Shown: positions 1,745 through 34,000 of the stretch, in pieces
Layout: each line of letters opens with the position of its first letter
Position numbering within the stretch: position 1 is the stretch's first letter
NCBI GenBank assembly: GCA_024276075.1
Contig: JAJRXX010000024.1
Location: 1-36,629, forward strand
Origin: Planctomycetota bacterium
GTDB lineage: Bacteria; Planctomycetota; Phycisphaerae; Phycisphaerales; Phycisphaeraceae
Direction of reading: 5' to 3'
DNA: 36,629 nucleotides
Notes under the pieces: model-generated
What the model saw: only the letters and a program-made list of their open reading frames with translations
Database searches by the model: none
Told to the model about the DNA's origin: nothing
Program-made: the position numbers and the translations under genes

Positions 1745-3145
1745 CTACCCCTCTTGCGTTACGGGATCGGAGGTTATGACCGTAGGGACTCCATCGGGGG
1801 TGGGAGTTTGGACGATAATGTAGGTGTTAAAACCGTCGCGGACGAGAAAGCGTAGACGTTTTTCTCGACTACCAGGGTGGCCGCGTCGTCCAGCGCGGAA
1901 CACAAACTCGTGCTCACCAGCAGACAATTCGATACGGACGACCTGAAAGCTTGCCGGCAGAAAGCTCCAGCAGCGTAGATCAGCCTGTTCCGCGCCCGTC
2001 CATATCGAGCCCGCCGCTGAGAGGATGATGTCCAGCGCGTTCCGTGTGTCTTTCGTTTTGTCACGGAGTTTGCGGCTTGCAATCTCCTTAGCGCTCTCGG
2101 TCGAGACGATTTTTAGTGCACGGCGAAGCACGGCACGCGCGATAATATAACTCTTCATCGCTGCGAACTCTTTCCTGGCGGTTGTCTCCACGTCGGTGAT
2201 GGTCGCGGTATGCCCAATTGCAAGGCCGTTTAGCGATATGTGTACCTCCGTCGGGTTATCTCGCCAATAGGCCATCGCGGGGATATTGACCTTCGTGATA
2301 TTCGGAAACGGAATCCGCTCTCGGCGCAGCGCCCAAATCACCTGCGCGATTGCCAATGCCCTGCCGCTAACGGGTTCCTCAGCCTCGACCCTGTACGGGC
2401 CCTTACCAACGAATGCCAATACGTGTACGACTCCATTGCCTTTCTTTGAGTGTTTGCCGTTTGTGGCCCGTTCTAGGTCGTCGTCCGCATATGGAAAGCT
2501 CGGCTCTAAAAGCTTGACCTTATCGAACGACGCACGTGCAACGCCTAGCTTAAGGGGGTCTTCTTCGTTGAGAATGGCACGGAGGTATGCGCCGAAGGCA
2601 ACCAGTTTGTAGGCCTTCTTGGGCTCATACCCGTCATCATCGCGAAACGACTCAATAATCTGTCGCTGTTTTTCGAGTACCTGAAGCGCGTAGGCATCCG
2701 CGTCACCGCCGCTTTGCACAAGGTTAACAACAGCCAACACGGCGCGCACTAAAACTTTTTCGAAATCGGTACCCGCATAGCCTAACTGCCGATCGTCGAG
2801 CAGCAACGCATTGATCTCACCATTCCAATCCTGTTTTTCTAGGTAATCGAGCCGGTTTCGAGCTTGGCGAAGCGTCTGTTCGGCCTCATAAGGCTGACCA
2901 AGCGCCAACTCGACAATTCCGCGTTCGAGTTGAAATACGTGACGGTTGCCAGGGTCGTCTATTTCGAGTTGCACGAGACGTTCCCGGGCCTGTTCTAGCC
3001 GACCCTGATGGTACAGCCGTTGGACTTTTTGCATCGGATCGGATGCACAGCCGACAAGTAACGCAAGCACAAGCGCCCAGCGTGCGCAAACGTCGTGCTT
3101 TATAGGATGGAGGGTGTCAGCGACTAGTCGGTGATGACCGATCAT
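1745..3145 (-). CDS. COG3014-like lipoprotein with N-terminal TPR-like region
   Basis: A 466-aa protein with an n-region of about 20 residues, a hydrophobic stretch and a lipobox, LALLVGC|AS (Cys33), so it is probably a lipid-anchored envelope protein. Residues 35-110 look like helical TPR repeats (LYHQGRLEQARERLVQLE). The middle (GNGVVHVLAFVGKGPYRVEAEE..) and the C-terminal DLRCWSFLPASFQVVRIEL followed by GEHEFVFRA are the conserved segments I associate with COG3014, a family of unknown function. That family often sits beside LpoB-like proteins in gammaproteobacteria. Here its ATG overlaps the stop of the LpoB-like gene (ATGA, 3142-3145), so the two are translationally coupled. The pairing suggests a role in envelope or peptidoglycan assembly; this is inferred from neighbours only. 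Confidence 0.8.
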   Translation of the reverse strand: MIGHHRLVADTLHPIKHDVCARWALVLALLVGCASDPMQKVQRLYHQGRLEQARERLVQLEIDDPGNRHVFQLERGIVELALGQPYEAEQTLRQARNRLDYLEKQDWNGEINALLLDDRQLGYAGTDFEKVLVRAVLAVVNLVQSGGDADAYALQVLEKQRQIIESFRDDDGYEPKKAYKLVAFGAYLRAILNEEDPLKLGVARASFDKVKLLEPSFPYADDDLERATNGKHSKKGNGVVHVLAFVGKGPYRVEAEEPVSGRALAIAQVIWALRRERIPFPNITKVNIPAMAYWRDNPTEVHISLNGLAIGHTATITDVETTARKEFAAMKSYIIARAVLRRALKIVSTESAKEIASRKLRDKTKDTRNALDIILSAAGSIWTGAEQADLRCWSFLPASFQVVRIELSAGEHEFVFRAGRRGHPGSREKRLRFLVRDGFNTYIIVQTPTPDGVPTVITSDPVTQEG

Positions 3146-3750
3146 CGTGAAAAAGTCTTGCGCAACCGCTCAGAAACCTTGTCGTTCCAGCCGGTCTGTA
3201 CATCTACGAGTTCCAGAGTCAACATGTAGTTACGCTGTGTCTGGTCTCGGCTTGCACGAGTGGTGCCGCGCGTTAGTTTCGGGAATAAAAGGCACTCGAC
3301 CGGTGTACCCCTCGTTTCAAGGACGCCCATAAACGCGCGTCGATGCTTGGGAAGAAAAAGTTGTTCAGTACGCAGCCGTGTTTCTCGCAATGCCTCATTC
3401 ACGAACCGCGTGCTGATCGTCTGATATCGGCCAGAGCGATTGATACTTGTGTCGATCAACTCGAAGATATGGTCGTTCCAGTCGCCGAGTTCCTCTCCGC
3501 TAGCGTTTTCGATTGCTAATGTCGCGATTTTGAGTTTGCCTGTGCCTTGGTTCGATGCGCTGTGCAACTGTAATAGCTTCTGTACGGCGCCCTCTATCAA
3601 GCGGTCATATGTAGCAGCCCCCGCTCCGCGGTTGTCTATCAAATCATTTTCATCAGCTGTCATGATACGCCCTTGAGGATGGGACGAACACGCCCCCAGG
3701 ATCAGCACCAGGGAAGACAAAAAAAGAAAGATGCGTGCGGTTCTGCTCAT
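3142..3750 (-). CDS. LpoB-like penicillin-binding-protein activator lipoprotein
   Basis: The start is ATG at 3750 (MSRTARIFLFLSS), with GGAG 8 nt upstream; a TTG 30 nt further up would only lengthen the signal peptide. The product is 202 aa with lipobox LVLILGAC|SS. The body fits the LpoB/CsgG-related fold: KIATLAIENASGEEL, DTSINRSGRYQTIST and a C-terminal strand with YMLTLELVDVQTG followed by KVSERLRKTFSR. In E. coli, LpoB is an outer-membrane lipoprotein that activates the peptidoglycan synthase PBP1b. Whether this homologue does so in a planctomycete is unknown. It is the first gene of a two-gene operon with the COG3014-like lipoprotein. Confidence 0.75.
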   Translation of the reverse strand: MSRTARIFLFLSSLVLILGACSSHPQGRIMTADENDLIDNRGAGAATYDRLIEGAVQKLLQLHSASNQGTGKLKIATLAIENASGEELGDWNDHIFELIDTSINRSGRYQTISTRFVNEALRETRLRTEQLFLPKHRRAFMGVLETRGTPVECLLFPKLTRGTTRASRDQTQRNYMLTLELVDVQTGWNDKVSERLRKTFSR

Positions 3751-4056
3751 CGAAAAAACTCCAAAATAATATGATATCAATGTACAGGATTCACGTTTAG
3801 CTATCTATGGGGTGTTCGGTCTGTAAAGAGTGTTGGTGGGTTCATCAGCAACACGAACAATGGCTGGGGCGACCTTTTATCGAATTAGGCCTCCTGGCCG
3901 TGGCAACCGATGGATGTAATGATTTTACCTATTGACGTTAACGATTTGTCCACCAATACCCCAGCCGTGACACTTATTGCCGCCTCGTAGGTTTTCCCAC
4001 GAAACGCCGGGGAGTTATCATTATTAAATAACTCTATTGTCATACCGGGGGTTCCT
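3751..4056. promoter_or_regulatory. Divergent intergenic region with inverted repeat at 4012-4034
   Basis: These 306 bp separate the minus-strand lipoprotein operon from the plus-strand operon starting at 4057, so promoters for both should be here. A perfect 7-bp inverted repeat, gagttat/ataactc (4012-4018, 4028-4034, 9-nt spacer), lies 22 nt before the ATG at 4057, within the likely 5' leader. It has no T-run, so it is not a terminator; it could be an operator or leader hairpin. No confident -35/-10 pair was found. Confidence 0.4.
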
Positions 4057-6531
4057 ATGAAATTTACGCGAGCAATTTCATTATTTCTGATCGTAAATCT
4101 AACTTTTTCTCCATACTTCAGCTACTCGTTGTCCAGAGTCCAAGCAAAGGAGCTAACATCCAAGGATATCGCAGGCATAGCGGAACACTTGGAGAAGCGC
4201 TTCTTCCCGCTCGTTGAGGACCTCCTTGGGGTCTACCCGCGCGAGACTTTCGATGTTTCGTATCGTGCCGCGCTTCTTCCCAAAAGTGTTAAGACGATTT
4301 TCGAATGGGTTCGCGATAGGACCTTTCTTGTGCCCTATCAGGGGCAACTCCGCGGCGCGCGAGGCGTCCTTATGGACCGGCGCGGCAACAGCCTCGACCG
4401 CGCGCTGTTGCTCCAAGAATTACTGCGTGAGAAAGGCTTCGAGGCTCGTTTGGTGCGCGGGGATTTGGGCCCGGATATTTCTGCCCGGTTACTCGACGAA
4501 GCCCCACTCTACCCAGAAGATGGCCTCGATGAAGCGTCGCCCGAGTTCGACGAGCTAGAGTGGTTGAAACTTTCAAATCGCTACGGTCTGACAGATGTCC
4601 CAGATGAAAGTTACCCCAAGCATCAGGCTGTTATGTCCGTCATGGAAGACCTGATTGAGCGAGTTATTGAGACCTCCAATGCACTTGGAGAACTCGGCCT
4701 TCGCCCCGCCGCCTCGTCGGATAGGGCGCGTGCACTCACAGACCTCAGCGATCACTGGTGGGTCCAATATCAAGAAGGCGGGGATTGGATTGACCTCGAC
4801 CCCTCGCTGCCGAATGCTCGTCCCGGTGAGCGTCTGACCGAGCCCCGCATGGATGAGGTTTCACAGGCGCTGTTGCATAGGGTGCGCATCAAAGTGATCG
4901 TCGAGCGTTGGGAGAAGGACATGGGCCTCGTGGAAGAGGTGGCACTTGATCAGAGCGTGTCGCCGATGAATTATATGGGTAAAGCTTTCACGCTCGTTCA
5001 TGAGGGTGCAAATTTACAATCATTCGTAAAAGCCGATTCGTCAAAAAAATTCGAAGAGAATTTGCTTTCTCAAGACACGTGGCTACCCGTCCTGCGGGTA
5101 GTCGATAAGAGCGCTGTCGGCCAGGAAATCGACGCGTTCGGACAGCTATCCACCCCCAGTACGGACCCGGAAGTGCGCAGAGCGAAAAAAACTCGTGAGA
5201 CCCTAGAGACGGGTTGGAATGTTTTGAATCGCGTGATGGAGGGGACGAATGGACAGGCTCAGAAGGAGTCCAATCATGACAACCCAGCTTGGACCGCCCA
5301 GTGGCTTGAGTTCGAGGTCACGTCGCCGGGACGGGAGCCTCGCCGCACCCGTCGAACCGTCTTTGATTTGATCGGTGAAGCGCAGCGTACCCGACCTCTG
5401 ACGGCTCGGCCCGCACTGACCGACGAGCAAAAAATCGGGCGAGCACTAGCGCTTCTCAGTCAGGTCCGCTTCGTATTGCTTTGTTCGGACATCAACCCCG
5501 ACTTTGGAACTGTCGAGGCGCTCACGAGCACCCTTGCTCAGCGCGAGCGCGTCATGCGCGTCATCAAGAGCGAAAGTACAGATCCGACAGAACTCTTGAA
5601 ATTACTCTCTGGCGACGAACCCTTCCCCAGTTCACTTATGGGCCTTATATCCCTGCGCCGCTTGATAGGCCCGCAGAGCCTGAGCTATATAGACAGCCCG
5701 GGTATTTTGGCCCAGGTCAAGATACTCGATCGCCATGAGGGACAAATATATGCACGCAGTGGTATCGATTTCGTCGTCGGTAGCATAGGTATTCATCCTA
5801 GAGCGGGAACAAAGAGCGCGACGATGCGCTTTCAGCAGGGCATCATGGATACCTGGGCCGAGACTAAATTTCTCGATCAATCGGCATTCTTCGACGAAGA
5901 ATTGACAGAGGTCGAAAATACGGCTGTGTTCTTCGCGCAGCGCGATGCGCTAGGGAGTCAGTGGCGCACAATCAAGAGCAAGGACGACCAGGCTTGGCAA
6001 GAGATTGCATTGGACGACGACGAACGAGTTCGGCTCGAGGCGGTCCTCGAAAGTGGTTTTTGGATTGTGCTTCCCAAAGAAAAAATCCAATTCGACGGGC
6101 GACGGGTTCTGAGTTGGTGGCAGTTCGACCCGACAAGTGGCGACATTCTGGGGATGGGGGGGCGTGGTCATGGCCAAGCTATGTGGGAGTATCGCAAAGT
6201 AATCGGGGTGGGGACAGCCCTCATCGTGGGCCTATTCACCTTCCTCGGTTGTGCTGGCGGGCCCGAGTGGGCGGGGGGGCAAGGTTACGATGAGGTCTCC
6301 AGAACCAAGATAGCTCTATGCATCACTTGCGGTGTGGCCGCAGCGATTTTTACATATATCTCGGTCCTGGGTGCTATACAAGGCATTAAAGCTGCTTCAA
6401 TTGGCCCTCGCATGATGGGGATGCGTGGTGCTTTCATATCTCCCGAGGCTCTTAGGCAAGCTCTCAAGTTAGTTTTTGCTGGTGCAGGAGTAGGTGTAAT
6501 TTGTAACGTGATTGCCTTCAGAATGAGGTGA
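4057..6531 (+). CDS. Exported transglutaminase-fold protein lacking the catalytic Cys, with C-terminal membrane segments
   Basis: An 824-aa protein with an N-terminal signal peptide (MKFTRAISLFLIVNLTFSPY.. to about residue 31). Residues ~80-260 show a transglutaminase-like core: IFEWVRDRTFLVPYQGQLRG, then RRGNSLDRALLLQELLREKG (normally the Cys helix), then DHWWVQYQEGGDWIDLDPSLP (His and Asp strands). The position normally held by the nucleophilic Cys appears to be Ser (GNSLDRA), while His and Asp are present, so enzymatic activity is doubtful. The middle 400 residues are not recognised. The C-terminus has three hydrophobic segments, near residues 720-740 (VIGVGTALIVGLFTFLGCAG), 752-775 and 800-820, so the protein should be anchored with its large domain outside the cytoplasm. 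First gene of a three-gene operon: 30 nt to the next, which overlaps the third. Confidence 0.75.
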   Translation: MKFTRAISLFLIVNLTFSPYFSYSLSRVQAKELTSKDIAGIAEHLEKRFFPLVEDLLGVYPRETFDVSYRAALLPKSVKTIFEWVRDRTFLVPYQGQLRGARGVLMDRRGNSLDRALLLQELLREKGFEARLVRGDLGPDISARLLDEAPLYPEDGLDEASPEFDELEWLKLSNRYGLTDVPDESYPKHQAVMSVMEDLIERVIETSNALGELGLRPAASSDRARALTDLSDHWWVQYQEGGDWIDLDPSLPNARPGERLTEPRMDEVSQALLHRVRIKVIVERWEKDMGLVEEVALDQSVSPMNYMGKAFTLVHEGANLQSFVKADSSKKFEENLLSQDTWLPVLRVVDKSAVGQEIDAFGQLSTPSTDPEVRRAKKTRETLETGWNVLNRVMEGTNGQAQKESNHDNPAWTAQWLEFEVTSPGREPRRTRRTVFDLIGEAQRTRPLTARPALTDEQKIGRALALLSQVRFVLLCSDINPDFGTVEALTSTLAQRERVMRVIKSESTDPTELLKLLSGDEPFPSSLMGLISLRRLIGPQSLSYIDSPGILAQVKILDRHEGQIYARSGIDFVVGSIGIHPRAGTKSATMRFQQGIMDTWAETKFLDQSAFFDEELTEVENTAVFFAQRDALGSQWRTIKSKDDQAWQEIALDDDERVRLEAVLESGFWIVLPKEKIQFDGRRVLSWWQFDPTSGDILGMGGRGHGQAMWEYRKVIGVGTALIVGLFTFLGCAGGPEWAGGQGYDEVSRTKIALCITCGVAAAIFTYISVLGAIQGIKAASIGPRMMGMRGAFISPEALRQALKLVFAGAGVGVICNVIAFRMR

Positions 6532-6561
6532 TATTTCAAGACACATGATCAGGAATTCGCT

Positions 6562-7479
6562 GTGCCAAGGTCGCAAATACCCCTGCTCTTACTGTTGCTT
6601 ACGCTTTCGAATGTCCATGCGAGCGAGCCCGTTACCCTTGTCGTTACCGCCGACGGCGAAGGGCATGTCCACGCCTGCGACCGCTGCCCCGGCCGCAAGG
6701 GATTGGGCGGCTTGGCCCGACGCGCAACGATCGTCAAGGCGCTGCGTCACAAGACGCCGGACATCATCTTGCTCGACGCGGGCAATTCCCTGTTCGGTGC
6801 CGAAAGCACTTCTAGTGGCGGAAAGGTCATCGTCCGTGCCTACGAGCAGCTCCGGTACGTCGCGCTGAACGTTTCCTACCGGGATTTCCGCTACGGCAAG
6901 GATGCGACTCTGGCCCTGGCCGCCTCATCGGAGGTTCCCTTTTTATCCGCGAACCTGCTTGATGCCCAGAGCGGCAAGCCGTTATTTAAGCCCTACGAAA
7001 TCTGCCGGGTTGGGACGCGCAAAGTCGCCGTTATTGGTTTGACAAAGCGCCCCGTCGGGATCGATACGCTGCCCCATCTACGCCTCGAACTTGCTGGTAT
7101 CCAGGTCGCCGATCCGGTTGAGACCCTTGCGGAGTTGCTGCCGAAAGTGAAGAAGCACAGCGACGAAATTGTGCTGCTTTACTACGGGACAATCGAGGAA
7201 CTGAAGAAGATCGACCGGCGTTTTTCCGAGGATTTGATTGCCATCGCGATGGGCGGCCGCCGCACAGCCGAGATACCTCGCAACCCTGATGTTCCTATTG
7301 TCGCTTCGATGAACCACGGCCGTGCGCTGGGTATCCTCGATCTTGTCGCTGACGCCTCTGTAAGCATCCGGGTACAGCTTATCGATCCTGATACCGCTCA
7401 AGATACTGCGATGGAGAAGGCCCTGTCGGGTTTCCCGATCTTTGCGGACAGGAAGAATACAGAAAGCAAGGACGAATGA
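6562..7479 (+). CDS. 5'-nucleotidase/UshA-fold metallophosphatase-like protein, probably inactive
   Basis: A 305-aa exported protein. The start is GTG at 6562 with AGGA 7 nt upstream and gives a clean signal peptide (MPRSQIPLLLLLLTLSNVHA|SEP). The fold signature is CDRCPGRKGLGGLARRATI followed by IILLDAGNSLFG, like the N-terminal calcineurin-type domain of UshA-like 5'-nucleotidases, especially the subgroup with a CxxCP loop. The usual metal ligands look replaced: the first D-x-H is ADGEGH, LDAGD is LDAGN, GNHE is VSYRD, the later His strand is LLYYGT and GHxH is GGRR. A C-terminal nucleotide-binding domain is absent. The protein is therefore probably a non-catalytic relative. It lies 30 nt after the transglutaminase-fold gene and overlaps the next gene by 4 nt. 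Confidence 0.7.
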   Translation: MPRSQIPLLLLLLTLSNVHASEPVTLVVTADGEGHVHACDRCPGRKGLGGLARRATIVKALRHKTPDIILLDAGNSLFGAESTSSGGKVIVRAYEQLRYVALNVSYRDFRYGKDATLALAASSEVPFLSANLLDAQSGKPLFKPYEICRVGTRKVAVIGLTKRPVGIDTLPHLRLELAGIQVADPVETLAELLPKVKKHSDEIVLLYYGTIEELKKIDRRFSEDLIAIAMGGRRTAEIPRNPDVPIVASMNHGRALGILDLVADASVSIRVQLIDPDTAQDTAMEKALSGFPIFADRKNTESKDE

Positions 7480-8360
7480 AGGCTCTTACGAATTTGAGGT
7501 TTTTGTACCGTTATTCCTTTGCGACCATGCCCGGCCTCGGGAAGTTGTTGTGTGGCGGGATTATCGTCTTGTCTCATACACTGACGGCCCACGGCCTCTT
7601 CGTCGAACCCGATCGTGAAAATATCGTCTCGATGCGGCTCGAAGGTACTTGGTATCTTGCCCGTGAGTCAGTCGCCCCACCGACCGACAAGCCAATCGGT
7701 ACTATTCACAATGAACTCGTCTTAGAGTTCCGCAGCGAACGCCAGATTGCCGCGAATCTCCCCCAAGCCTTCACAGCATTTCTTGCCAAGAAACGGATAT
7801 TCATGGCGGGCACAATGAACCGAAACGGAACGACCCACCCGTTTGTGCTCATCGAGCACCACGGCAACCCACACGTCCTTTATTTTCGTGAGCACGACGG
7901 CGACCCGGTGGGCGATGCGGAGTCGTTCAACCTGCTCATAGCCGTTGCCGCAGACCGGGCGGACGATGTCCTGTTCGTCGGTGGCCGCACTCACAACCAA
8001 CCGATGCGCAAGCTCACACGCAGTCGGCGTGCAATTGCCGACGAGACCCCGGAGATGGCGCTGCGTCGCTCGATTGCGGAGATGCTACGCCTGCTGACTG
8101 AAAAGGAATACCGCAAACTGATTATTGATTATGCCCAACCAACTCAGATCGCGGAGCTAGACGAATCGGGATTAATAAAACTGGTAGAACAATACGCCCG
8201 GGGAACAGCGGCTCATTTGTTCGCCGCCCTGGAAAAAACACACGCCATGAAGCCGACCTTTAATGAAGACCAAACAGAGGCACGGTTTCCCCTCACGGGC
8301 GTACCCGGTGGCGCACTGGTATTCAAGCAAATCAACCGCCACTGGTACCTTATCAACTGA
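7476..8360 (+). CDS. Exported or membrane-anchored protein of unknown function
   Basis: A 294-aa protein not recognised as a known family. Its ATG overlaps the preceding stop (ATGA, 7476-7479), so it is translated with the metallophosphatase-like gene. An N-terminal hydrophobic stretch, PGLGKLLCGGIIVLSHTLTAHG (residues ~19-40), preceded by basic residues, looks like a signal peptide or anchor. Residues ~45-195 read as an antiparallel beta domain (LEGTWYLARES, NELVLEFRSERQ, THPFVLIEHHGNPHVLYFRE, DVLFVGGRTHNQPMRKLTR). Residues ~205-260 are helical (RSIAEMLRLLTEKEYRKLII). A last strand pair, GALVFKQINRHWYLIN, resembles the end of NTF2-like or SnoaL-like domains. Its job is likely tied to its two operon partners in the envelope. 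Confidence 0.65.
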   Translation: MKALTNLRFLYRYSFATMPGLGKLLCGGIIVLSHTLTAHGLFVEPDRENIVSMRLEGTWYLARESVAPPTDKPIGTIHNELVLEFRSERQIAANLPQAFTAFLAKKRIFMAGTMNRNGTTHPFVLIEHHGNPHVLYFREHDGDPVGDAESFNLLIAVAADRADDVLFVGGRTHNQPMRKLTRSRRAIADETPEMALRRSIAEMLRLLTEKEYRKLIIDYAQPTQIAELDESGLIKLVEQYARGTAAHLFAALEKTHAMKPTFNEDQTEARFPLTGVPGGALVFKQINRHWYLIN

Positions 8361-8565: not shown

Positions 8566-8670
8566 TATACGCATTGCGTATATTTCTAGCGCGTCGGAAG
8601 TAGCATAAGTGATTGTCTATCCTGCACCCGCATCCGTGGATGCTGCGTAAGTATTAATCTGAATTGGCAT
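8566..8670 (+). mobile_element. ~105-bp non-coding element, copy 2
   Basis: This stretch aligns over its whole length, with scattered substitutions, with the insert at 1557-1661. It shares atacgcattgcgtat at the start, the block taagtgattgtct in the middle and aagtattaatct near the end. It has the same orientation as copy 1, 7 kb away, and ends at the stop codon of the minus-strand gene at 8670-11036. Boundaries are accurate to a few bases. Confidence 0.6.
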
Positions 8671-11036
8671 TAGTAATTGCCTCTCCGGATAAAGTCGAAC
8701 AGTTCTTTGGCACCCTTGCCGGGGTGTACGATGCTCAGGTATGGCTCCTCGAGCTGAATCCTCTCGCCAGGCTCGGAGACCTCCATGAGCGCGTGCTCCT
8801 TGCCATCCCAAATCGCCACCGCTCCCGCGTTTTTTTCGCTGGTGAAGATGCGGGATCGCTCAATGACGTTGCCGCGAGTGGAGCGGACCTCTCTGTGCAC
8901 GTTTAATTTGGCTCTGTCCATCTTGAACTCGTAGAGGACGGTTATTTTCTTGGTGTTTTTTTCGGCGAGTTCGAACCACCCTTCGCGTGCTTTGTCGCTG
9001 TGAGAAAACCTATAAGTCCTGTTTTCCTGCCACGCAAACTTCGGCAACAAATCACGCTGGGACAGGTACTGCAAATAGTGTCTGCGGGCCGTCTGCAGTA
9101 CCAATTCGGGGAATCGAGCATTGCCCTCTCGCTGCAACGCAGGGAAATCGATTAAATCCAGGTCGGGCTTGTCGATCACGGTGTGATAAAAATGGTCGGC
9201 ATACCATAGCGCGCTAGACAAATGTTCGTACCCAGGCTCAGATTCCAGGCCGCTGCAAAGCTCCGCGTTTCGGTTGATTTGCGATGACGGTTGTGCCTTC
9301 GATTTGTCCGAATAAATCTCAATGCTCTCGAGCAAGGAACCAGCGGCGACCTTTGCCAGCTTGCGTTTGAGTGCTTCGGTATTCTTCTCGCTGCGGTCGG
9401 CCAATTCTGCTGGCGGGTCTATGCGCACGTCATATCTCGCTACCCAACGTGGCTTGTAGGCCTCCACAGCCTCGATCAGTTGCCGGTAGGAGCGCAGTGT
9501 GTCGTCAAATAATTTCTCGGCAAGTTCGATGTCCCGGCGCTGTCCAGAGTCGTAGGCTGCGGACAGTTGGCCGCGGACTCGGTCCCACGCGGCGCGGACT
9601 TGACCGAGCCGGGATTCGATGTCCTGCCGAGAGGGTGTTTGTGCGTCGTGCGAAGTCTTTTCGATCGTAATCTTGAAGATCAAATTCGAGTCAATCATGT
9701 GTCGGACGTCCGCACGGCAGATCGCGTTCCAAACGATGATTCCGGTTTTAATCTCAATAAGCTTCGCATTGAGCTGCGCGAATATGCCGGGGAGTTTGAT
9801 GGCCGACGGGAGATCGGCCTCAGGGACCTGTTGAGCCAGTGACTGATATGAGTTGCTTGCACGCGCGTTAACCGCAATGCTGTCGCCGACACCCACATCG
9901 AAAGTGTTGATCTGGAGCATATAGTCAGCCCCGAGATCAGTTCCTCTAGCCATCTGAAACAGTTCCGCCGCGTCTCTGAGATACTTCGGTGCATCCTTGT
10001 CGCTGGCAGCGGTTGCTTGTCGCAGCTTGGCTTCAAAGGCTGTCCGGTCGACCACACGCAACCCCATACGCGTCAGAGTCATTTCGATAGCCTGCTCGAC
10101 ACGATCAAAGTATCCGGTGGTATGAAAGACCTTGCCTCGATCGGCAGCCGAGGGCGTTGCGGGAACACCTATTACAAACCTGCTGCTGGCCGGTATGGCC
10201 TTTGTCATAACCCCTTCTGCTGCGGGAGGCGCCCCGTTATTAACTTTCACAACGGCCGTATGCCGCTTCGTACGCGGTGCCTGGTGGTTGTTCCAGCGGA
10301 CCCGGGGCAGATCGATCTCAAGCCGCTTGCGATTCACGGTCCGCGTCCGCCGAGTATCCGAGCCGGTTTTTCGGGGTAGTCGCGACGCGCTGTCATCACC
10401 AAGCCAATGACTGCCAAGCTCGTGGTACCGAAAGAGTTCGCGAGCGCCTAAGCCCGATAAAACCTGGCGGTACTCTGCTATTACCTGCCGGTCGGCTGTA
10501 CGCTGGCATGCCCAGTCAATCTTAAGCACGTCGTCACGTTTCAGACGATCAAAGACTTGGTGCTCGACCTTACCAAAGATGACATAGTCAGCCTCGATCA
10601 GATCAGCTATCGGGTAGACATCCTCAAGCCCATTCAGAGAGGCGGGACTCGTGCCCCCAGCGAGAATATCGTTTTTCAACTCAGAACCCGAGAGAGCTGA
10701 TTTTATACCTAAAGCCCGCAAGCCCAACGCGGTCTGCTCCATAAGCAATTCACCGAGCCCGGTCACGTGCATAGCATCGGTGTCCGGGGTCGGTGTTAGT
10801 GCTGGAAACACCGCCACGACGCCGGGTTTTCTACCGATCGCCACCGCAGTCTTCGCTACGAAGTCGCCCAGCCCGTCAAGTCCGAGGGATTGCCCCTGCG
10901 GCACGTCATACGGGTTGACTACCTGGTTTTCCGGCGTGTTAACCCCTGGGATGGATCGGTGAGGTGCTTGATTAACAGCGCATGCGCTTAGTAGTAAGAC
11001 AAACGGTATGCCGACGCTGACGAATATCTTGTTCAT
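8670..11036 (-). CDS. Large lipoprotein with CsgG/LpoB-like segments
   Basis: A 788-aa protein starting at ATG 11036 with AAGGA about 10 nt upstream. Signal peptide and lipobox: MNKIFVSVGIPFVLLLSAC|AV (Cys19). Residues ~75-160 (KPGVVAVFPALTPTPDTDAM, LLMEQTALGLRALGIKSAL, IEADYVIFGKVEHQ) and ~295-450 (FDRVEQAIEMTLTRMGLRVVDR, LGADYMLQINTFDVGVG, LNAKLIEIKTGIIVWNA) each look like a CsgG/LpoB-type alpha/beta domain. A helical stretch (~475-600) and an unrecognised C-terminal domain (~600-788) follow. The fold calls rest on pattern only. The size and doubled domain differ from the ~200-aa LpoB-like protein at 3142-3750. Together with that gene and the COG3014-like gene it gives three envelope lipoproteins in one block, around the plus-strand operon. 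Confidence 0.7.
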   Translation of the reverse strand: MNKIFVSVGIPFVLLLSACAVNQAPHRSIPGVNTPENQVVNPYDVPQGQSLGLDGLGDFVAKTAVAIGRKPGVVAVFPALTPTPDTDAMHVTGLGELLMEQTALGLRALGIKSALSGSELKNDILAGGTSPASLNGLEDVYPIADLIEADYVIFGKVEHQVFDRLKRDDVLKIDWACQRTADRQVIAEYRQVLSGLGARELFRYHELGSHWLGDDSASRLPRKTGSDTRRTRTVNRKRLEIDLPRVRWNNHQAPRTKRHTAVVKVNNGAPPAAEGVMTKAIPASSRFVIGVPATPSAADRGKVFHTTGYFDRVEQAIEMTLTRMGLRVVDRTAFEAKLRQATAASDKDAPKYLRDAAELFQMARGTDLGADYMLQINTFDVGVGDSIAVNARASNSYQSLAQQVPEADLPSAIKLPGIFAQLNAKLIEIKTGIIVWNAICRADVRHMIDSNLIFKITIEKTSHDAQTPSRQDIESRLGQVRAAWDRVRGQLSAAYDSGQRRDIELAEKLFDDTLRSYRQLIEAVEAYKPRWVARYDVRIDPPAELADRSEKNTEALKRKLAKVAAGSLLESIEIYSDKSKAQPSSQINRNAELCSGLESEPGYEHLSSALWYADHFYHTVIDKPDLDLIDFPALQREGNARFPELVLQTARRHYLQYLSQRDLLPKFAWQENRTYRFSHSDKAREGWFELAEKNTKKITVLYEFKMDRAKLNVHREVRSTRGNVIERSRIFTSEKNAGAVAIWDGKEHALMEVSEPGERIQLEEPYLSIVHPGKGAKELFDFIRRGNY

Positions 11037-12076: not shown

Positions 12077-14482
12077 TTACACTTCTAGCCGGAGACTGAT
12101 CCGCGGTATACGCCGACGGGTTAGCAGAACACTTGTAATCAGAAGCACGCCGAACGTCCCGGGCTCGGGAACGGGCGTGAATCGTAAAAAGATATCACCC
12201 GTGTCAGCGCCGCCGCCCACAAATGTATCAAACGATCCGGAAGAGAACGCGGCATTGCTGAGCAAGCTGAAACCCGCGTTGCCCGGATTGCTCGCGAGTC
12301 CCGTCACATCGATGACCTTCCACGTGCGGGGTGCGGTCCAGAAAGGGTCGCTCGATTGCGGCAGAAGACTTGGATCGTCGAAGCCGATTACCAGCGTCGC
12401 CAAGGGGTCAATCCGCAGTTGCCCACCGCTGACAACGATCAAGTCGAATTCGGTTCCGCCTGCTCCCGTGGCGGCGTCGGCCAAGGCGCCCAGGCCCCAC
12501 TCGTAAAGGGAAGAACTCCCGAACGCAACGCCGTTCAGGAACATCATCGAGCCGGAATGATTGATAATCGCATTCACATTGCCGGATACCAAGGCGGTGT
12601 TGGAGGTAACAGACAACCCGGTTTGAGTGGTATTCGTATTCACATCGCCGGGCGCCAAGGCCGTGTCGGCAGTGACGGACAGGTTGCGTGTGAATTGGGC
12701 TGTTCCACCGATGCGGGTGTTGGCTAGCGTCACGATATCGGTATTGACCACGCCCTGGAACTGTACCGCACCCTCTGCTAATCCGAAGATGCCTTCGTAT
12801 CCGCTGGCGTCTTGAATCTTGAGGAGGCCGAAACCGAACTTGGCCAAACCGGCGCTTGGCAAACCCGAAAGGCTACCGAGCGTCACCGCGAAGCTGTTCG
12901 TGTCGATCGTGCTGCCCGCAGTCCCGTCCACCACCAACGGCACACCGGCCGAGGCGAAGTCCAGGTCCCCTCCCGCAAGCAGCGTTCCGTTATCGAGACG
13001 TACCGCACCGGTGCCCGCAGCCAAGGGGTTGTCCAACTCCAGCGTCGCCTGGTTTACGATCGTCTCGCCCGCTCGGCTGCCGATGCCACGAAGGGTCAAC
13101 CGGCCGTTGCCCATGACGGCTAAGGGGATCGTACTCGTCGATGTCAAGGCCGCAATGTCCCTGGCCGTCACCGCGAAGGCGTTCGTGTCGATCGTGTTGC
13201 CCACAACCCCGTCCAACACCACCTGCACACCGGCCGAGTCGAAGTCCAGGTCCGCTCCCGCACGCAGCGTCGCGTCATCGAGCCGTACCGCACCGGTGCC
13301 CGCGGCCAAGGGGTTGTCCAACTCCAGCGTCGCCTGGTTTACGATCGTCTCGCCCGCTCGGCTGCCGATGCCACGAAGGGTCAACCGGCCGTTGCCCATG
13401 ACGTTTAAGGGGATCGTCGTCGATGTCGTGCCCGTAATGTCCCTGGCTGTCACATCGAAGCTGTTCGTGTCGATCGTGCTGCCCGCAGTCCCGTCCACCA
13501 CCAACGGCACGCCAGCAAAGTCGAAGTCCAGGTCCGCTCCCGCACGCAGCGTCCCGTCATCGAGACGCACACCGCCGCCCGCGCCCTGGGCGCTAAAGAG
13601 TTCTACCGATGAATTGGTCGCTTGTACCTGGTTCGGGTTGTTGCCGAGGATGGTCAGACGCCCACCACCGATGACATTTACGGGAACTGTCGATGACGCC
13701 ACAGAACCAAGGTCGTTCACCATCGTGTCGACGAACGAGGTGTTGAAGGTGCCCCCGCCATCACCCACATTGATTGTGCGCGAGGTCAGATCACCGTTCC
13801 CGGTGATAAAAAGTTCACCATTATGCAAGCCGATCGGGCCGGTGCCCAAGCCAGAGATACCGCCGGTGTGTATGGCTGAACCGCCGGATATGTCGATACC
13901 CCCGGTGGTGGTGTTGGTGGCGAATATCCCCAGGATACCGCCGCCCGTGACGCGTATGGTGGCGGGTACGGTATCTTCAAAAATCGGTCCAAAAAAAAGC
14001 ACGGCCCCCGCCGGAGTCGGGTTGACCACGTTTACCGTCAGCTCGCTGTCGGCGATGATTATCGGCGCGAAAAACGTGAAGCCTGGTGATCCCGGCACCT
14101 CAACAATGGCGGGGGGTTTGGAGGACGAATTATTGGTAAAACGAAGGGGGTCCCCCCCGATTTGGCCCGGATTCACCCCCCCGTTGACCAGGTTGAGGCT
14201 GTTGAGTTCGTAAATGCCCAGATCGTTCTCGGCGGTATAGAACGTGTCGGTACCCGGGAAGGTGAGGGAAGTATCCGGGCCGCCCGCAGGGACCGTTCCC
14301 GAACCCCATGCCGTCGGATCGCTAAAGGGATTATTGCCGTTTGTGGCGATCCAAAGGTCTATGTGTTGGCCCACAGCGGGGTCGGGTCGTATTGCTAAAC
14401 CCACCGCAACCAAAGCCGACCCGCGCAGCAAACTACGGCATCGAACCTGGCGATGCTTTCTTCCTTTCCTACGCTTGCTCAT
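12077..14482 (-). CDS. PEP-CTERM surface protein with autotransporter-type beta-strand repeats
   Basis: An 801-aa secreted protein. The basic N-terminus (MSKRRKGRKHRQVRCRSLLR) is followed by a signal-peptide core ending near AVGQ. Residues ~40-560 are Gly/Thr/Asn-rich beta repeats (GGGRLTILGN, GNGRLTLRGIGS) like autotransporter-associated beta strand repeats. Two ~95-residue units are almost identical, with a third partial unit. The C-terminus is a PEP-CTERM signal: VPEP (~771), a hydrophobic stretch, then TRRRIPR. This signal is cut by an exosortase in Gram-negative-type cells that make exopolysaccharide; no exosortase gene is in the window. ATG at 14482 has AAGG 6 nt upstream and a good promoter further up. 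Probably a surface or biofilm matrix protein. Confidence 0.9.
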   Translation of the reverse strand: MSKRRKGRKHRQVRCRSLLRGSALVAVGLAIRPDPAVGQHIDLWIATNGNNPFSDPTAWGSGTVPAGGPDTSLTFPGTDTFYTAENDLGIYELNSLNLVNGGVNPGQIGGDPLRFTNNSSSKPPAIVEVPGSPGFTFFAPIIIADSELTVNVVNPTPAGAVLFFGPIFEDTVPATIRVTGGGILGIFATNTTTGGIDISGGSAIHTGGISGLGTGPIGLHNGELFITGNGDLTSRTINVGDGGGTFNTSFVDTMVNDLGSVASSTVPVNVIGGGRLTILGNNPNQVQATNSSVELFSAQGAGGGVRLDDGTLRAGADLDFDFAGVPLVVDGTAGSTIDTNSFDVTARDITGTTSTTIPLNVMGNGRLTLRGIGSRAGETIVNQATLELDNPLAAGTGAVRLDDATLRAGADLDFDSAGVQVVLDGVVGNTIDTNAFAVTARDIAALTSTSTIPLAVMGNGRLTLRGIGSRAGETIVNQATLELDNPLAAGTGAVRLDNGTLLAGGDLDFASAGVPLVVDGTAGSTIDTNSFAVTLGSLSGLPSAGLAKFGFGLLKIQDASGYEGIFGLAEGAVQFQGVVNTDIVTLANTRIGGTAQFTRNLSVTADTALAPGDVNTNTTQTGLSVTSNTALVSGNVNAIINHSGSMMFLNGVAFGSSSLYEWGLGALADAATGAGGTEFDLIVVSGGQLRIDPLATLVIGFDDPSLLPQSSDPFWTAPRTWKVIDVTGLASNPGNAGFSLLSNAAFSSGSFDTFVGGGADTGDIFLRFTPVPEPGTFGVLLITSVLLTRRRIPRISLRLEV
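12870..13573 (-). repeat. Tandem ~285-bp coding repeats in the PEP-CTERM gene
   Basis: Two full units (about 13573-13287 and 13286-13001) and part of a third encode RLDD(G/A)TLRAGADLDFD..VVDG followed by NGRLTLRGIGSRAGETIVNQ. The stretch 13003-13116 is repeated nearly base for base at 13288-13401, 285 bp (95 codons) away. Such near-identity at DNA level points to recent duplication or gene conversion. Confidence 0.85.
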
Positions 14483-30850: not shown

Positions 30851-31080
30851 GTGGCTCAGAATAGTTGTTAAAAAAAAGCTTTGGTATTGAAGCCCAAGCG
30901 GTTACAATTTAAGTTACTTGGTGGGAGAGTTGCTTTGGCCAACCGAATTTAGCTGTGATGAAGCCATTGGTAATAAATTTTCGCTACGGCTAACCAAAGT
31001 GTTTGGCGGGTGTTATTTATTCGAACCAGCCCTAGCCCGTCGATTACATCTTAAAAATGAATAACCCCTAGGAGGTGTTT

Positions 31081-34000
31081 ATGATTTTGTCTGAGAAAAT
31101 TAACCCCAGAGGTGGCCATGTCTGCCTGTTAGCCCTTCTGGTGGCGTTCCTTTTTTACACCCCAGCGCACGCGATTGTTTTTGATTTTACATACGAAGCG
31201 GGAAGTTCCGCTCCGCCGGCTTTCGAGGATGCGAGTGGCACACAATTGCTCAATATCATGAACGCCGCTGGAGCCTTATGGGGAGATATCATCGAAGACC
31301 CCTTGACGATCAACGTCGCTGTGCGCTGGCAGGTGCCCACCATCGGCGCCAATTTTTCGGGGCAGATGTCGCTTTATGGAAACCATCCCAACAACACCAA
31401 CGGCGATCCTTCGGAGCAGAACAGCCGTGCTGTGTGGGCACTGATCCGGATGAACCCAAACCGCACATGGTGGGTCGATCCGACACCGCTTAACAACTCT
31501 GAATTCGACATGAACCAGACCCTCTTTCGGGACCTTACGCTGGGCCAACAAACAGGCGTATTTTCACAAGGCACTCCGCCGGACCTGCTCGAAGTCGGTT
31601 TCCGTGGCGCACCGAACGCATCCGCTCCCGCGCTGATGCAAGCTGCGGGCACGCGGGACCTGCTCACCGTCTCCATACACGAATTGGGCCACACCGTCGG
31701 TATCGGTGGCACACAGGCGGCTGCCAACGAGTTCGGTACCGACGGCACTTACGACATCCCTACCTCACTTGTTAACGGTGCCAGTTTTGATGTGAATACG
31801 GAGTCCCTGACCAACAGCCACATCCACCCTTCCTCCGTGGGTGGCGCCCAGGTCCTCATGTGCAGGTGTAGCTTGGCAAACGTGCGTATTTTGCCCAGTG
31901 CGATTGACGTTTTCGCGGGTGCCACCACCGCCAACTGGACCGATATCGACCTGCAGCGACAGGACTTCCTAGGCGGCAACGATTGGAACACAGGTTTTAA
32001 TTGGGAGGGCAACGCGCCGCCTGGTTTTTTGGACGATGCTTGGGTCCGTAATGGCAATCATATCTCGCTCAGCGCCAACGGCTCTGCAAATGATCTGGAG
32101 ATCAGCGCCAGCAGCGAAGTCACCACCAATGCAAACACGCTCAGCGTCGTTAACACCATCACCGTCGAGCACGACACCGGCGGGCTACGGCCATTTCTCA
32201 GGGTATCGGCAGGCGGAGAAGTCAACGCCAACGACCTGAACCTCAACGGCGGTGAGCTGCTGCTGCTCGGCGGAACCGTCGACCTCGACGACGACCTCAC
32301 CGTGCGCATCACCAACGGTCAGCGTGGTCGTATTACCGGGCGAGGCACCATTGATATCGACGGCGACCTGACCAACGGCGGCACCATCCGCCCATTCGGT
32401 GGGACACTGACCATCAACTCCAACGCCGCGTTCGCTGCGCTTAACCTCGACGGCCTCGGCGGTGTGGGTATCGTCGATGCCACCGTCGGCGACCTCACGA
32501 TTAATGGAGACCTACTAGGTTCATACGACGGCCTGATCACCGTGGGCGATGATCGTACGGTCACCTTTAATGACGGGTGGACCCTGGGCAGCTCCGGACA
32601 GTTAATCTTAGAAGGCGGAGCCACCGCAACCGACGCGGCCACCATCGCCGGGCCCGACACCACGCTCGAGGGGCCAGTCGAGGTAGACGGATTCGCCCGT
32701 ATCAGCAACACCACCATCGACGGGGCATCGATTGACCTGGCTGCAAATACCGCTTCCGGGACACTCATACTCAGTGGGCCGACCACCTACACCTCGGGTA
32801 ATACCCTGGGCTCGGGTGTACTCAGGCAGGACGGTGATCTAACCGTCAACGGCACCTTCTCAATCGGAAACGCCACCTACGACTGGGATGGAGGGTTTGC
32901 CTCGCCCAGCGATACAACCATTACGCCTAACGGCAGCCTCTCTATATCTTCCGGTACCATTGACCCTTTCGACAACGCACACGACGGTACGATCAACGTG
33001 AACAGCGGCTCTCTGAATGTGCTTACTGCTTGGGAACTCGACGGAACGCTAAATATGACCCGAACAAGCGGGCAAACGCCGGTGCTCGACGGCATCGGCG
33101 GCGTGACGATCAATACCGGCGCTCAGCTTAATACCGTCGGTACTGTGACGATCAATACCCCCGTGACCGTGGATGGCGAAGTTAACGTGGGCCAATTCGG
33201 TCAGCTCACGGGCACGACATCTTTTAACGGAGCCGTTGACTTTAACGCTACCGCTGACGTCACCATCGAGTCGGGCTCCACTCTTTCTATCAACGATACC
33301 GCTAATTTCGACGATGGCTCGTATGTCGGCAACGGTACCCTGCGCATCAACGGCACCGCCGACATCATCGACGACGTCAGTTGGGGCATGATGAACCTCG
33401 ACTGGGACGGCATCACCGGTACCGGCGTCACCAATATCGGACTAGGCCGCTCACTCTCCATCGCCTCCAATACCGTGGAAGTCGCCGCCAACGACGGCTT
33501 CGACGGCACCGTCAACGTCACCAGCGGCACACTCTCTGTGTTGCCCGCGTGGCGGCTCGATGGCGTACTGAACCTCAACCAGATTACGCCACAGTTTCTC
33601 CGACCCACACTCAATGGTACGTTTGGCTTGACCATACACACCACCGGCCAACTCAATACCGACGGAAATGCGAACATTAACACAGCGGTCACCGTCAACG
33701 GCGGCGTGCAGGTCACCGACGGCACCGCGTCATTTAACAACAACATCGACTTCAACAGTACAGCCAGTGTGGTCGTCAGTATCAGTTCATTGAGCGTTAC
33801 CGGGTCGGAGGTCTTGGAACTCAATGGCCTGACCACCTACAGCGGCGGTTCATACGGCGGCAACGGCACCATCCGCCAAGTCGGTGATGCGACCGTGCTT
33901 ACAGATACCACCATTTCCGTTGGTCGTTTTGACGCCGACGGCGAAGAAAACGCGCCAAGCACGCTCCAACTCAATGCCGACCTCACACTTAATGTAGAGC

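What the first reader, a model, noticed from the sequence alone, without database searches (positions are those of the whole stretch)
4057..8360. Operon whose two recognisable enzymes both look catalytically dead
The transglutaminase-fold protein has Ser where the nucleophilic Cys should be (GNSLDRA). The 5'-nucleotidase-fold protein lacks all usual metal-ligand motifs (LDAGN, VSYRD, LLYYGT, GGRR) but keeps the CxxCP loop and GGLARRA. The third, tightly coupled gene is unrecognised. All three are exported or anchored. Two pseudoenzymes kept together suggest a structural or sensing complex in the envelope rather than metabolism.
Basis: partly seen in the sequence, partly recalled or inferred. 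Interest (0 to 1): 0.6.

Follow-up and report, generated by a model that had tools for sequence, protein, structure and literature searches.

The report
Enzyme look-alikes in a bacterial envelope operon
Two neighbouring proteins of the cell envelope look like well-known enzymes but lack their catalytic parts, and related bacteria keep the pair together inside a larger surface-protein gene set, so they more likely bind, anchor or sense than metabolise.

Summary
ORF1 (4057-6531) is a transglutaminase-fold protein with Ser112 where an intact transglutaminase of the same genome has Cys; His233 and Asp248 are kept. None of 33 rows covering that column has Cys. ORF2 (6562-7479) folds like the UshA metallophosphatase domain (Z 31.9) but keeps 1 of 7 metal ligands. 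Relatives share both losses, so this is not decay. The pair recurs: 7 of 7 high-scoring members of the ORF2 clade lie directly behind an ORF1 homologue. The trio does not: ORF3 found no homologue. The usual partners are a CsgG-family lipoprotein and a von Willebrand A protein, both ending in zinc ribbons; neither was found in the window's genome. ORF2 is not simply dead: its CxxC falls on the CGU/CGC motif of UshA-like (seleno)proteins, whose examined members have lost the metal ligands too. Best reading: a metal-free, thiol-bearing binding domain plus a catalytically inactive transglutaminase in an envelope complex. Both ingredients are known kinds; my paper searches did not find the combination.

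The parts
4057..6531 (+). ORF1: Cys-less transglutaminase-fold protein, 824 aa, C-terminal hydrophobic (membrane) segments
4390..4392 (+). Ser112, at the catalytic Cys position (GNSLDRA)
   Evidence: alignment to own-genome transglutaminase L165 and to homologues; codon checked
4753..4755 (+). His233 of DHWWV, catalytic His position, kept
   Evidence: invariant in the 9 rows of A5
4798..4800 (+). Asp248 of DLDP, catalytic Asp position, kept
   Evidence: invariant in the 9 rows of A5
6562..7479 (+). ORF2: UshA-like metallophosphatase-fold protein with lost metal site, 305 aa, N-terminal domain only
6676..6687 (+). CxxC (Cys39, Cys42), aligned with the CGC/CG-Sec motif of UshA-like (seleno)proteins
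6784..6786 (+). Asn75 in place of the UshA metal ligand Asp (GD to GN)
6877..6882 (+). Tyr106-Arg107 in place of the Asn-His of GNHE
7183..7185 (+). Tyr208 in place of a UshA metal-ligand His (LLYYG)
7476..8360 (+). ORF3: 294-aa protein without detected homologue, ATG overlaps the ORF2 stop by 4 bp
3142..3780 (-). divergent neighbour, LpoB-like lipoprotein (sub-threshold 15.6 bits, cut-off 22.3); possible CsgG/LpoB-fold counterpart of the module's CsgG gene (inference; no match to the CsgG profile)

Best explanation
ORF1 and ORF2 are a pair from an envelope protein module of Phycisphaerae. In its fuller form the module is an operon-like row: a CsgG-family lipoprotein with a C-terminal zinc ribbon, then the Cys-less transglutaminase-fold membrane protein, then a long protein made of the metal-free UshA-like domain, DUF4352-like segments, a cyclase-like repeat region, a von Willebrand A domain and the same kind of zinc ribbon (gene order and domains shown; export inferred). 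The transglutaminase fold most likely binds peptide or wall ligands without catalysis and is held by its C-terminal membrane segments. The UshA-like domain most likely binds a partner or ligand in its old active-site cleft, where the metal centre has been replaced by a Cys pair (inferred). The complex would serve cell-surface assembly, adhesion or sensing rather than nucleotide metabolism or cross-linking (inferred). In the window the pair stands without the CsgG and VWA genes and with an orphan third gene; the LpoB-like and large lipoprotein-like genes next to it may stand in (inferred).
For: Nucleophile column without Cys in 33 of 33 distinct rows that cover it, window included, with an intact Cys protein of the same genome as control. 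His and Asp kept in 12 of 13 rows that cover those columns; the exception is L082. ORF2 clade: 0-1 of 7 metal ligands and CxxC in 7 of 7; UshA fold Z 31.9. The 7 ORF2 clade rows over 400 bits all lie directly downstream of an ORF1 homologue on the same strand. Co-occurrence in 298 class genomes: TG with VWA protein 7 genomes, TG only 2, VWA only 2; TG with CsgG 7, TG only 2, CsgG only 1. VWA over a Pfam cut-off in 6 of 6 module proteins scanned; CsgG over cut-off in 2 of 2. Published inactive transglutaminases in other envelopes have proposed peptide-binding/anchoring roles (PMC3482391) or mutant phenotypes in stress tolerance, biofilm or vesicle formation (PMC12239564, PMC12096838); passages only.
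Against: No binding, localisation or interaction data. The UshA domain is not universal in the module: not recognised in L134, L135, L136, L137, L139, and only partly in L073 and L138. In L136 and L137 the TG and VWA genes lie on opposite strands and no CsgG gene is in view; L072 also shows no CsgG gene. The window's genome (95.8% complete) showed neither the full-length VWA protein nor the CsgG-zinc-ribbon protein, so its copy cannot work in exactly the same way. The ORF1 model is poor (pLDDT 53.6) and Foldseek gave no match at E 0.001. The trees do not place the window's copies.
Confidence: 0.5

Rival explanations
1. ORF2 is an active thiol protein, not a pseudoenzyme: UshA-like (seleno)proteins exchanged the di-metal phosphatase centre for a Cys/Sec redox centre, and ORF2 is a CxxC form that does dithiol-disulfide chemistry or thiol-ligand transfer in the envelope complex.
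For: In-frame TGA at EPCG(TGA)RPP in L027-L030, and a TGA nearby in L031 (KPAT(TGA)), aligned on the window CxxC. Of 50 UshA-like rows, 28 with CxC/CxxC keep 0-3 ligands, 5 with TGA keep 1-2, while the 8 rows with 5-7 ligands lack the motif. The over-cut-off NF041198 loci fetched from 11 of 11 genomes (L148-L158) keep 1-3 of 7 ligands. Six of ten proteins scanned (L044, L045, L047, L004, L050, L057) show cytochrome c554-like matches, all under that model's cut-off. CxxC in 7 of 7 ORF2 clade members. Reviews list CxU and CxxU motifs for these families (PMC13188914, PMC9312934, passages).
Against: 9 of the 17 rows without the motif have also lost the ligands (0-3), so loss does not need the thiols. 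The CxxC could be a structural disulfide in an exported protein; it is missing in the degenerate module member L073; the module members show no heme region. One paper sets UshA-like apart from families with redox motifs (PMC2398784 passage). Rows are related and not a random sample, so the test overstates.
Confidence: 0.3
2. ORF1 is an active Ser-His-Asp hydrolase on a transglutaminase fold.
For: Ser112 with His233 and Asp248 kept; Ser in 9 of 33 rows.
Against: The position is His in L021/L022, Thr in L072, Ala in L134/L135, all with His and Asp kept, and Asp or Ala in most outgroup rows; a nucleophile would not vary so.
Confidence: 0.05
3. The genes are decaying remnants of active enzymes.
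For: The window lacks the other module genes; ORF1 has a long branch; one module copy elsewhere (G293, L137) has two stops in its VWA gene.
Against: Reading frames are intact, motifs are conserved at 23-41% identity, and the same active-site losses are shared by several genera.
Confidence: 0.05

Closest known systems
Inactive transglutaminase domains of polymorphic toxins (PMC3482391)
   Same: transglutaminase domain after an N-terminal export signal, one or more triad residues lost, proposed peptide binding/anchoring (passages read); several outgroup rows sit in frames of 2,590-5,402 aa
   Different: no RHS repeat or toxin family matched ORF1 in Pfam; ORF1 has C-terminal membrane segments and a CsgG/VWA module context in relatives
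RloB / HM2192 type inactive transglutaminase with seven membrane helices (PMC12239564, PMC12096838)
   Same: inactive transglutaminase as a membrane protein of the envelope (passages)
   Different: RloB's operon partners are a retropepsin-like protease and an ATP-grasp protein, not UshA-like or VWA; homology to ORF1 not tested
UshA-like (seleno)protein NF041198 (PCGU) and family 2 NF049981 (CxxU)
   Same: UshA-type domain, Cys/Sec motif after the first strand; metal ligands lost in the NF041198 members examined
   Different: 130.6 and 44.9 bits, under the cut-offs 275 and 140; CxxCP instead of CG(C/U); no heme-like C-terminal part
UshA / CD73 5'-nucleotidase
   Same: N-terminal metallophosphatase domain fold (Z 31.9), GGLARRA
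   Different: 1 of 7 metal ligands, no C-terminal substrate domain (305 aa)
CsgG curli-type lipoproteins (PF03783)
   Same: family of the first gene of the fuller module (73.7 and 64.5 bits)
   Different: C-terminal zinc ribbon; not found in the window's genome at E 1e-20

Membership tests
Active transglutaminase-like enzymes (PF01841) | Pfam match over cut-off | tested here: met
   24 bits, cut-off 23
Active transglutaminase-like enzymes (PF01841) | catalytic Cys | tested here: not met
   Ser112 at the Cys column; 0 of 33 rows Cys
Active transglutaminase-like enzymes (PF01841) | catalytic His and Asp | tested here: met
   His233, Asp248
Active transglutaminase-like enzymes (PF01841) | transglutaminase/NAT fold | tested here: inconclusive
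   best VIA match NAT 1e2t Z 7.4, rmsd 3.8, 111 residues, model 64-273; tied with other rows; Foldseek none at E 0.001
Inactive transglutaminase domain of polymorphic toxins | triad residue lost | tested here: met
Inactive transglutaminase domain of polymorphic toxins | followed by RHS repeats and a C-terminal toxin domain | tested here: not met
   no RHS or toxin family in ORF1 by Pfam at E 1
UshA-type 5'-nucleotidase | metallophosphatase fold | tested here: met
   Z 31.9 to 1ush, model-based
UshA-type 5'-nucleotidase | seven metal ligands (positions recalled) | tested here: not met
   1 of 7
UshA-type 5'-nucleotidase | C-terminal substrate-binding domain | tested here: not met
   ORF2 ends at 305 aa after the N-terminal domain; aligned UshA range 27-365 of a 550-residue chain
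UshA-like (seleno)protein NF041198 | model cut-off 275 bits | tested here: not met
   130.6 bits
UshA-like (seleno)protein NF041198 | PCG(U/C) motif | tested here: not met
   ACDRCP: Cys pair at the same place with one residue more between
UshA-like (seleno)protein NF041198 | metal ligands lost (pattern found here, not part of the family definition) | tested here: met
   over-cut-off loci of 11 of 11 genomes keep 1-3 of 7; window 1 of 7
UshA-like (seleno)protein family 2, NF049981 | model cut-off 140 bits | tested here: not met
   44.9 bits, residues 24-116 only
Phycisphaerae CsgG-TG-VWA module (this report) | TG homologue directly followed by UshA-like domain | tested here: met
Phycisphaerae CsgG-TG-VWA module (this report) | CsgG-zinc-ribbon gene and VWA-zinc-ribbon protein | tested here: not met
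   none in the window; none in its genome at E 1e-20 (CsgG) or at full length (VWA)

The most novel reading that the evidence does not exclude
UshA-like (seleno)proteins are a class in which a di-metal phosphoesterase fold was emptied of its metals and refitted with a thiol or selenol pair at the same cleft, and ORF2 is a CxxC form built into an envelope complex with a catalytically inactive transglutaminase, so that the complex is assembled or switched by the redox state outside the inner membrane.
Probability: 0.25. Interest if true: 0.75.

Novelty: new variant of a known kind. Interest (0 to 1): 0.5.

Why it matters
It turns an odd pair into a recurring gene module that can be recognised in other Phycisphaerae, and it suggests why a 5'-nucleotidase-like family was ever a selenoprotein: in the rows examined, no protein with the Cys/Sec motif keeps an intact metal site. 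That is directly testable by metal content, redox titration and structure. It also warns against annotating these genes as nucleotidase or transglutaminase.

Tried and rejected
Foldseek on the whole ORF1 model gave nothing usable, and VIA matches under Z 8 are not proof of fold. The NAT and DRC7 rows cover the expected transglutaminase region but are tied with coiled-coil and arrestin-like rows.

PDB sequence searches with the ORF1 profiles gave no match at E 0.01 and eight weak ones at E 0.19-0.96, among them DRC7 and an arylamine N-acyltransferase. PADLOC gave no hit for five proteins. ORF3: no PDB match at E 1, no homologue at E 0.001 in the 150 other order genomes searched, four matches at E 0.016-0.027 in the 50 other family genomes, taken as chance.

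Hoped to find the window's own CsgG and VWA proteins: profile searches of the window ORFs gave only chance scores and the class searches found none at full length in G000. The best G000 match to the VWA profile covers only positions 170-351 on another contig; 219 of 298 genomes drawn have some match to that profile.

The trees do not show whether the window's pair is a reduced or an early form. Hairpins after the TGA codons of L027-L030 look alike, but only L029 beats its shuffles clearly (z -2.79; the others -0.37, -0.97, -1.35), so I do not claim a SECIS element.

In one search the last ligand column was off by one; it was corrected, which is the one cited. Rows dropped: L039 and L037 (gaps in the ligand columns). 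Rows whose nucleophile column was a gap, and rows with identical context, were dropped. The 50 UshA-like rows came from similarity searches seeded by the ORF2 clade, so they are not a random sample; L031 is counted as a TGA row although no Cys stands before its TGA. The alignment was made anew and its last ligand column can differ by a residue.

Co-occurrence cut-offs (TG E 1e-30, VWA 1e-60, CsgG 1e-20, UshA 1e-60) were chosen after seeing the score gaps; G234 and G293, whose weaker TG hits lie beside VWA genes, were counted as TG-absent; G283 (TG only) is a short contig of a 65% complete genome.

In one search the second own-genome transglutaminase (L164), added in full length, pulled the alignment apart at the Ser region; it is therefore no independent support for the column, and its Cys motif was read by eye.
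Full report
What is there. The window is a whole 36.6-kb contig of a 2.88-Mb genome in 77 contigs. ORF1, ORF2 and ORF3 lie head to tail on the + strand with a 30-bp gap and a 4-bp overlap. To the left, divergently, lie an LpoB-like and a TPR-type lipoprotein-like gene; to the right, convergently, a large lipoprotein-like gene (LpoB match sub-threshold).

ORF1. The Pfam match is just over cut-off. As an internal control I looked at the other two transglutaminase-type genes of the same genome. L165 aligns with its GDC on the GNS of ORF1, its His on DHWWV and its Asp on DLDP. L164 shows a GNC motif by eye, but a joint alignment with it failed in this region. ORF1 has a long insertion between the Ser and the His. 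In the loci held the nucleophile column reads Ser 9, Thr 1, His 2, Ala 7, Asp 12, Pro 1, Val 1, Cys 0 in 33 distinct rows, window included. Twelve of the 13 rows that cover the His and Asp columns keep both. The only Cys invariant among the nine aligned module proteins is C758, near the C-terminal membrane segments. Outgroup rows in very long frames also lack Cys, in line with the published inactive transglutaminases of polymorphic toxins (PMC3482391, passages only). So the loss is old and widespread, and Ser is only one of several replacements.

ORF2. The AlphaFold model is good (pLDDT 86.4, pTM 0.85) and matches the N-terminal domain of E. coli UshA (Z 31.9, rmsd 3.9 over 280 residues, 21% identity; Foldseek query TM 0.70-0.76 in the rows shown). 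The C-terminal substrate domain of UshA is absent. HMMER alignments to solved nucleotidases show lost ligands directly. Of seven ligand columns (UshA numbering D41, H43, D84, N116, H117, H217, H252, recalled) only D41 remains; six of the seven clade members keep one and one (G192) keeps none. E33, C39, C42, P43 and GGLxRR are invariant in all seven.

The Cys pair. It may be more than a leftover. In four Chloroflexota relatives found by the same search (L027-L030) the frame runs EPCG-TGA-RPP(K/T)GGLARR, and in a fifth (L031) a TGA stands at nearly the same place without the Cys. This is the PCGU motif of UshA-like (seleno)proteins, NF041198. Counting ligands in 50 UshA-like rows: with CxC or CxxC, 28 rows, 0-3 ligands; with TGA, 5 rows, 1-2; without the motif, 17 rows, of which 8 keep 5-7 and 9 keep 0-3 (Fisher p 4.5e-5 without correction for relatedness). 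So thiols go with loss, but loss also occurs without thiols. A search of 169 phylum genomes found 11 with an NF041198 match over the curated cut-off; those loci (L148-L158) keep 1-3 ligands and carry CGC, CDC or CAC, and six of them show a second copy with a TGA in the fetched stretch. Of ten proteins scanned with NCBIfam, L044 is over the NF041198 cut-off and shows the same loss. Reviews list CxU and CxxU for these families (PMC13188914, PMC9312934, PMC2398784, passages only). None of the passages I read mentions loss of the metal ligands; I did not read those papers in full.

The neighbourhood in relatives. Sixteen loci including the window were scanned with profiles. In ten (L021, L022, L023, L026, L070, L073, L134, L135, L138, L139) a CsgG-type gene with a C-terminal zinc ribbon stands directly before the transglutaminase gene. 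In eleven (L021, L026, L070, L072, L073, L134-L139) the repeat-VWA protein, whole or in part, lies on the same fetched stretch, in L136 and L137 on the opposite strand; L022 and L023 end before it could be seen, L140 and L141 are short contigs. The UshA-like domain is N-terminal in a longer frame in L021, L023, L070 and L072, cut by the contig end in L022, partial in L073 and L138, a separate gene in L026 as in the window, and not recognised in L134-L137 and L139. VWA is over a Pfam cut-off in the six proteins scanned; the cyclase-like region and some DUF4352 and zinc-ribbon matches are below cut-off. In 298 genomes of the class the genes go together: 7 genomes with TG and VWA, 7 with TG and CsgG, against 2 or fewer with one alone. 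G000 has the transglutaminase and UshA-like genes and neither partner was found in it. The UshA-like gene occurs once in G000.

How it most likely works. Shown: tight gene order, a transglutaminase fold without its nucleophile, a UshA fold without its metal site but with a conserved Cys pair, recurrent linkage, partners with CsgG, VWA and zinc-ribbon domains. Inferred: the transglutaminase fold binds peptide or wall material and is held by its C-terminal membrane segments; the UshA fold binds a ligand or partner and may use its thiols; the VWA domain and zinc ribbons join the parts. Published inactive transglutaminases in other envelopes affect stress tolerance, biofilm and vesicle formation (PMC12239564, PMC12096838, passages), which makes a structural or regulatory role plausible. 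The window's version is either a reduced or a variant form; the trees could not decide.

Novelty. Paper searches for CsgG with transglutaminase, Phycisphaer/von Willebrand/CsgG, CsgG/von Willebrand/transglutaminase/Planctomycetes and transglutaminase/pseudoenzyme/planctomycete listed no paper that, from title and start of abstract, describes this module. The ingredients are known kinds; the combination and the metal-for-thiol pattern appear new within what I could search, which leaves out most subscription journals.

Noticed in passing
G509:C241, G494:C13, G523:C59, G479:C76, G537:C44, G397:C24, G424:C2, G462:C30: UshA-like (NF041198) matches in tandem, one with an in-frame TGA and a neighbour without stop: possible Sec/Cys paralogue pairs. 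CGU was read in the fetched stretch of six (L151, L152, L155-L158), CGC in the neighbour.
   Followed up: partly
L027, L028, L029, L030 (51 nt from the TGA): A similar short hairpin about 20 nt after each TGA; only L029 folds clearly better than shuffles. Possible bacterial SECIS, not shown.
   Followed up: partly
L021:6896-7837, L026:4298-5281 and other CsgG genes; C-termini of the VWA proteins: Lipoprotein-type CsgG proteins and VWA proteins end in the same kind of zinc ribbon, which seems unusual for envelope proteins; the two profiles cross-match only at their C-terminal ends.
   Followed up: no
L070:5401-10433: Two different transglutaminase genes in tandem within one module (G278), both with Ser at the Cys place.
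   Followed up: no
window 8670-11036 and 1745-3145: Large lipoprotein-like genes beside the operon without Pfam or NCBIfam match over cut-off; by eye the first resembles CsgG/TolB-N folds.
   Followed up: no
window 12077-14482 and 31075-35394: Long repetitive proteins with PEP-CTERM-like ends (by eye).
   Followed up: no
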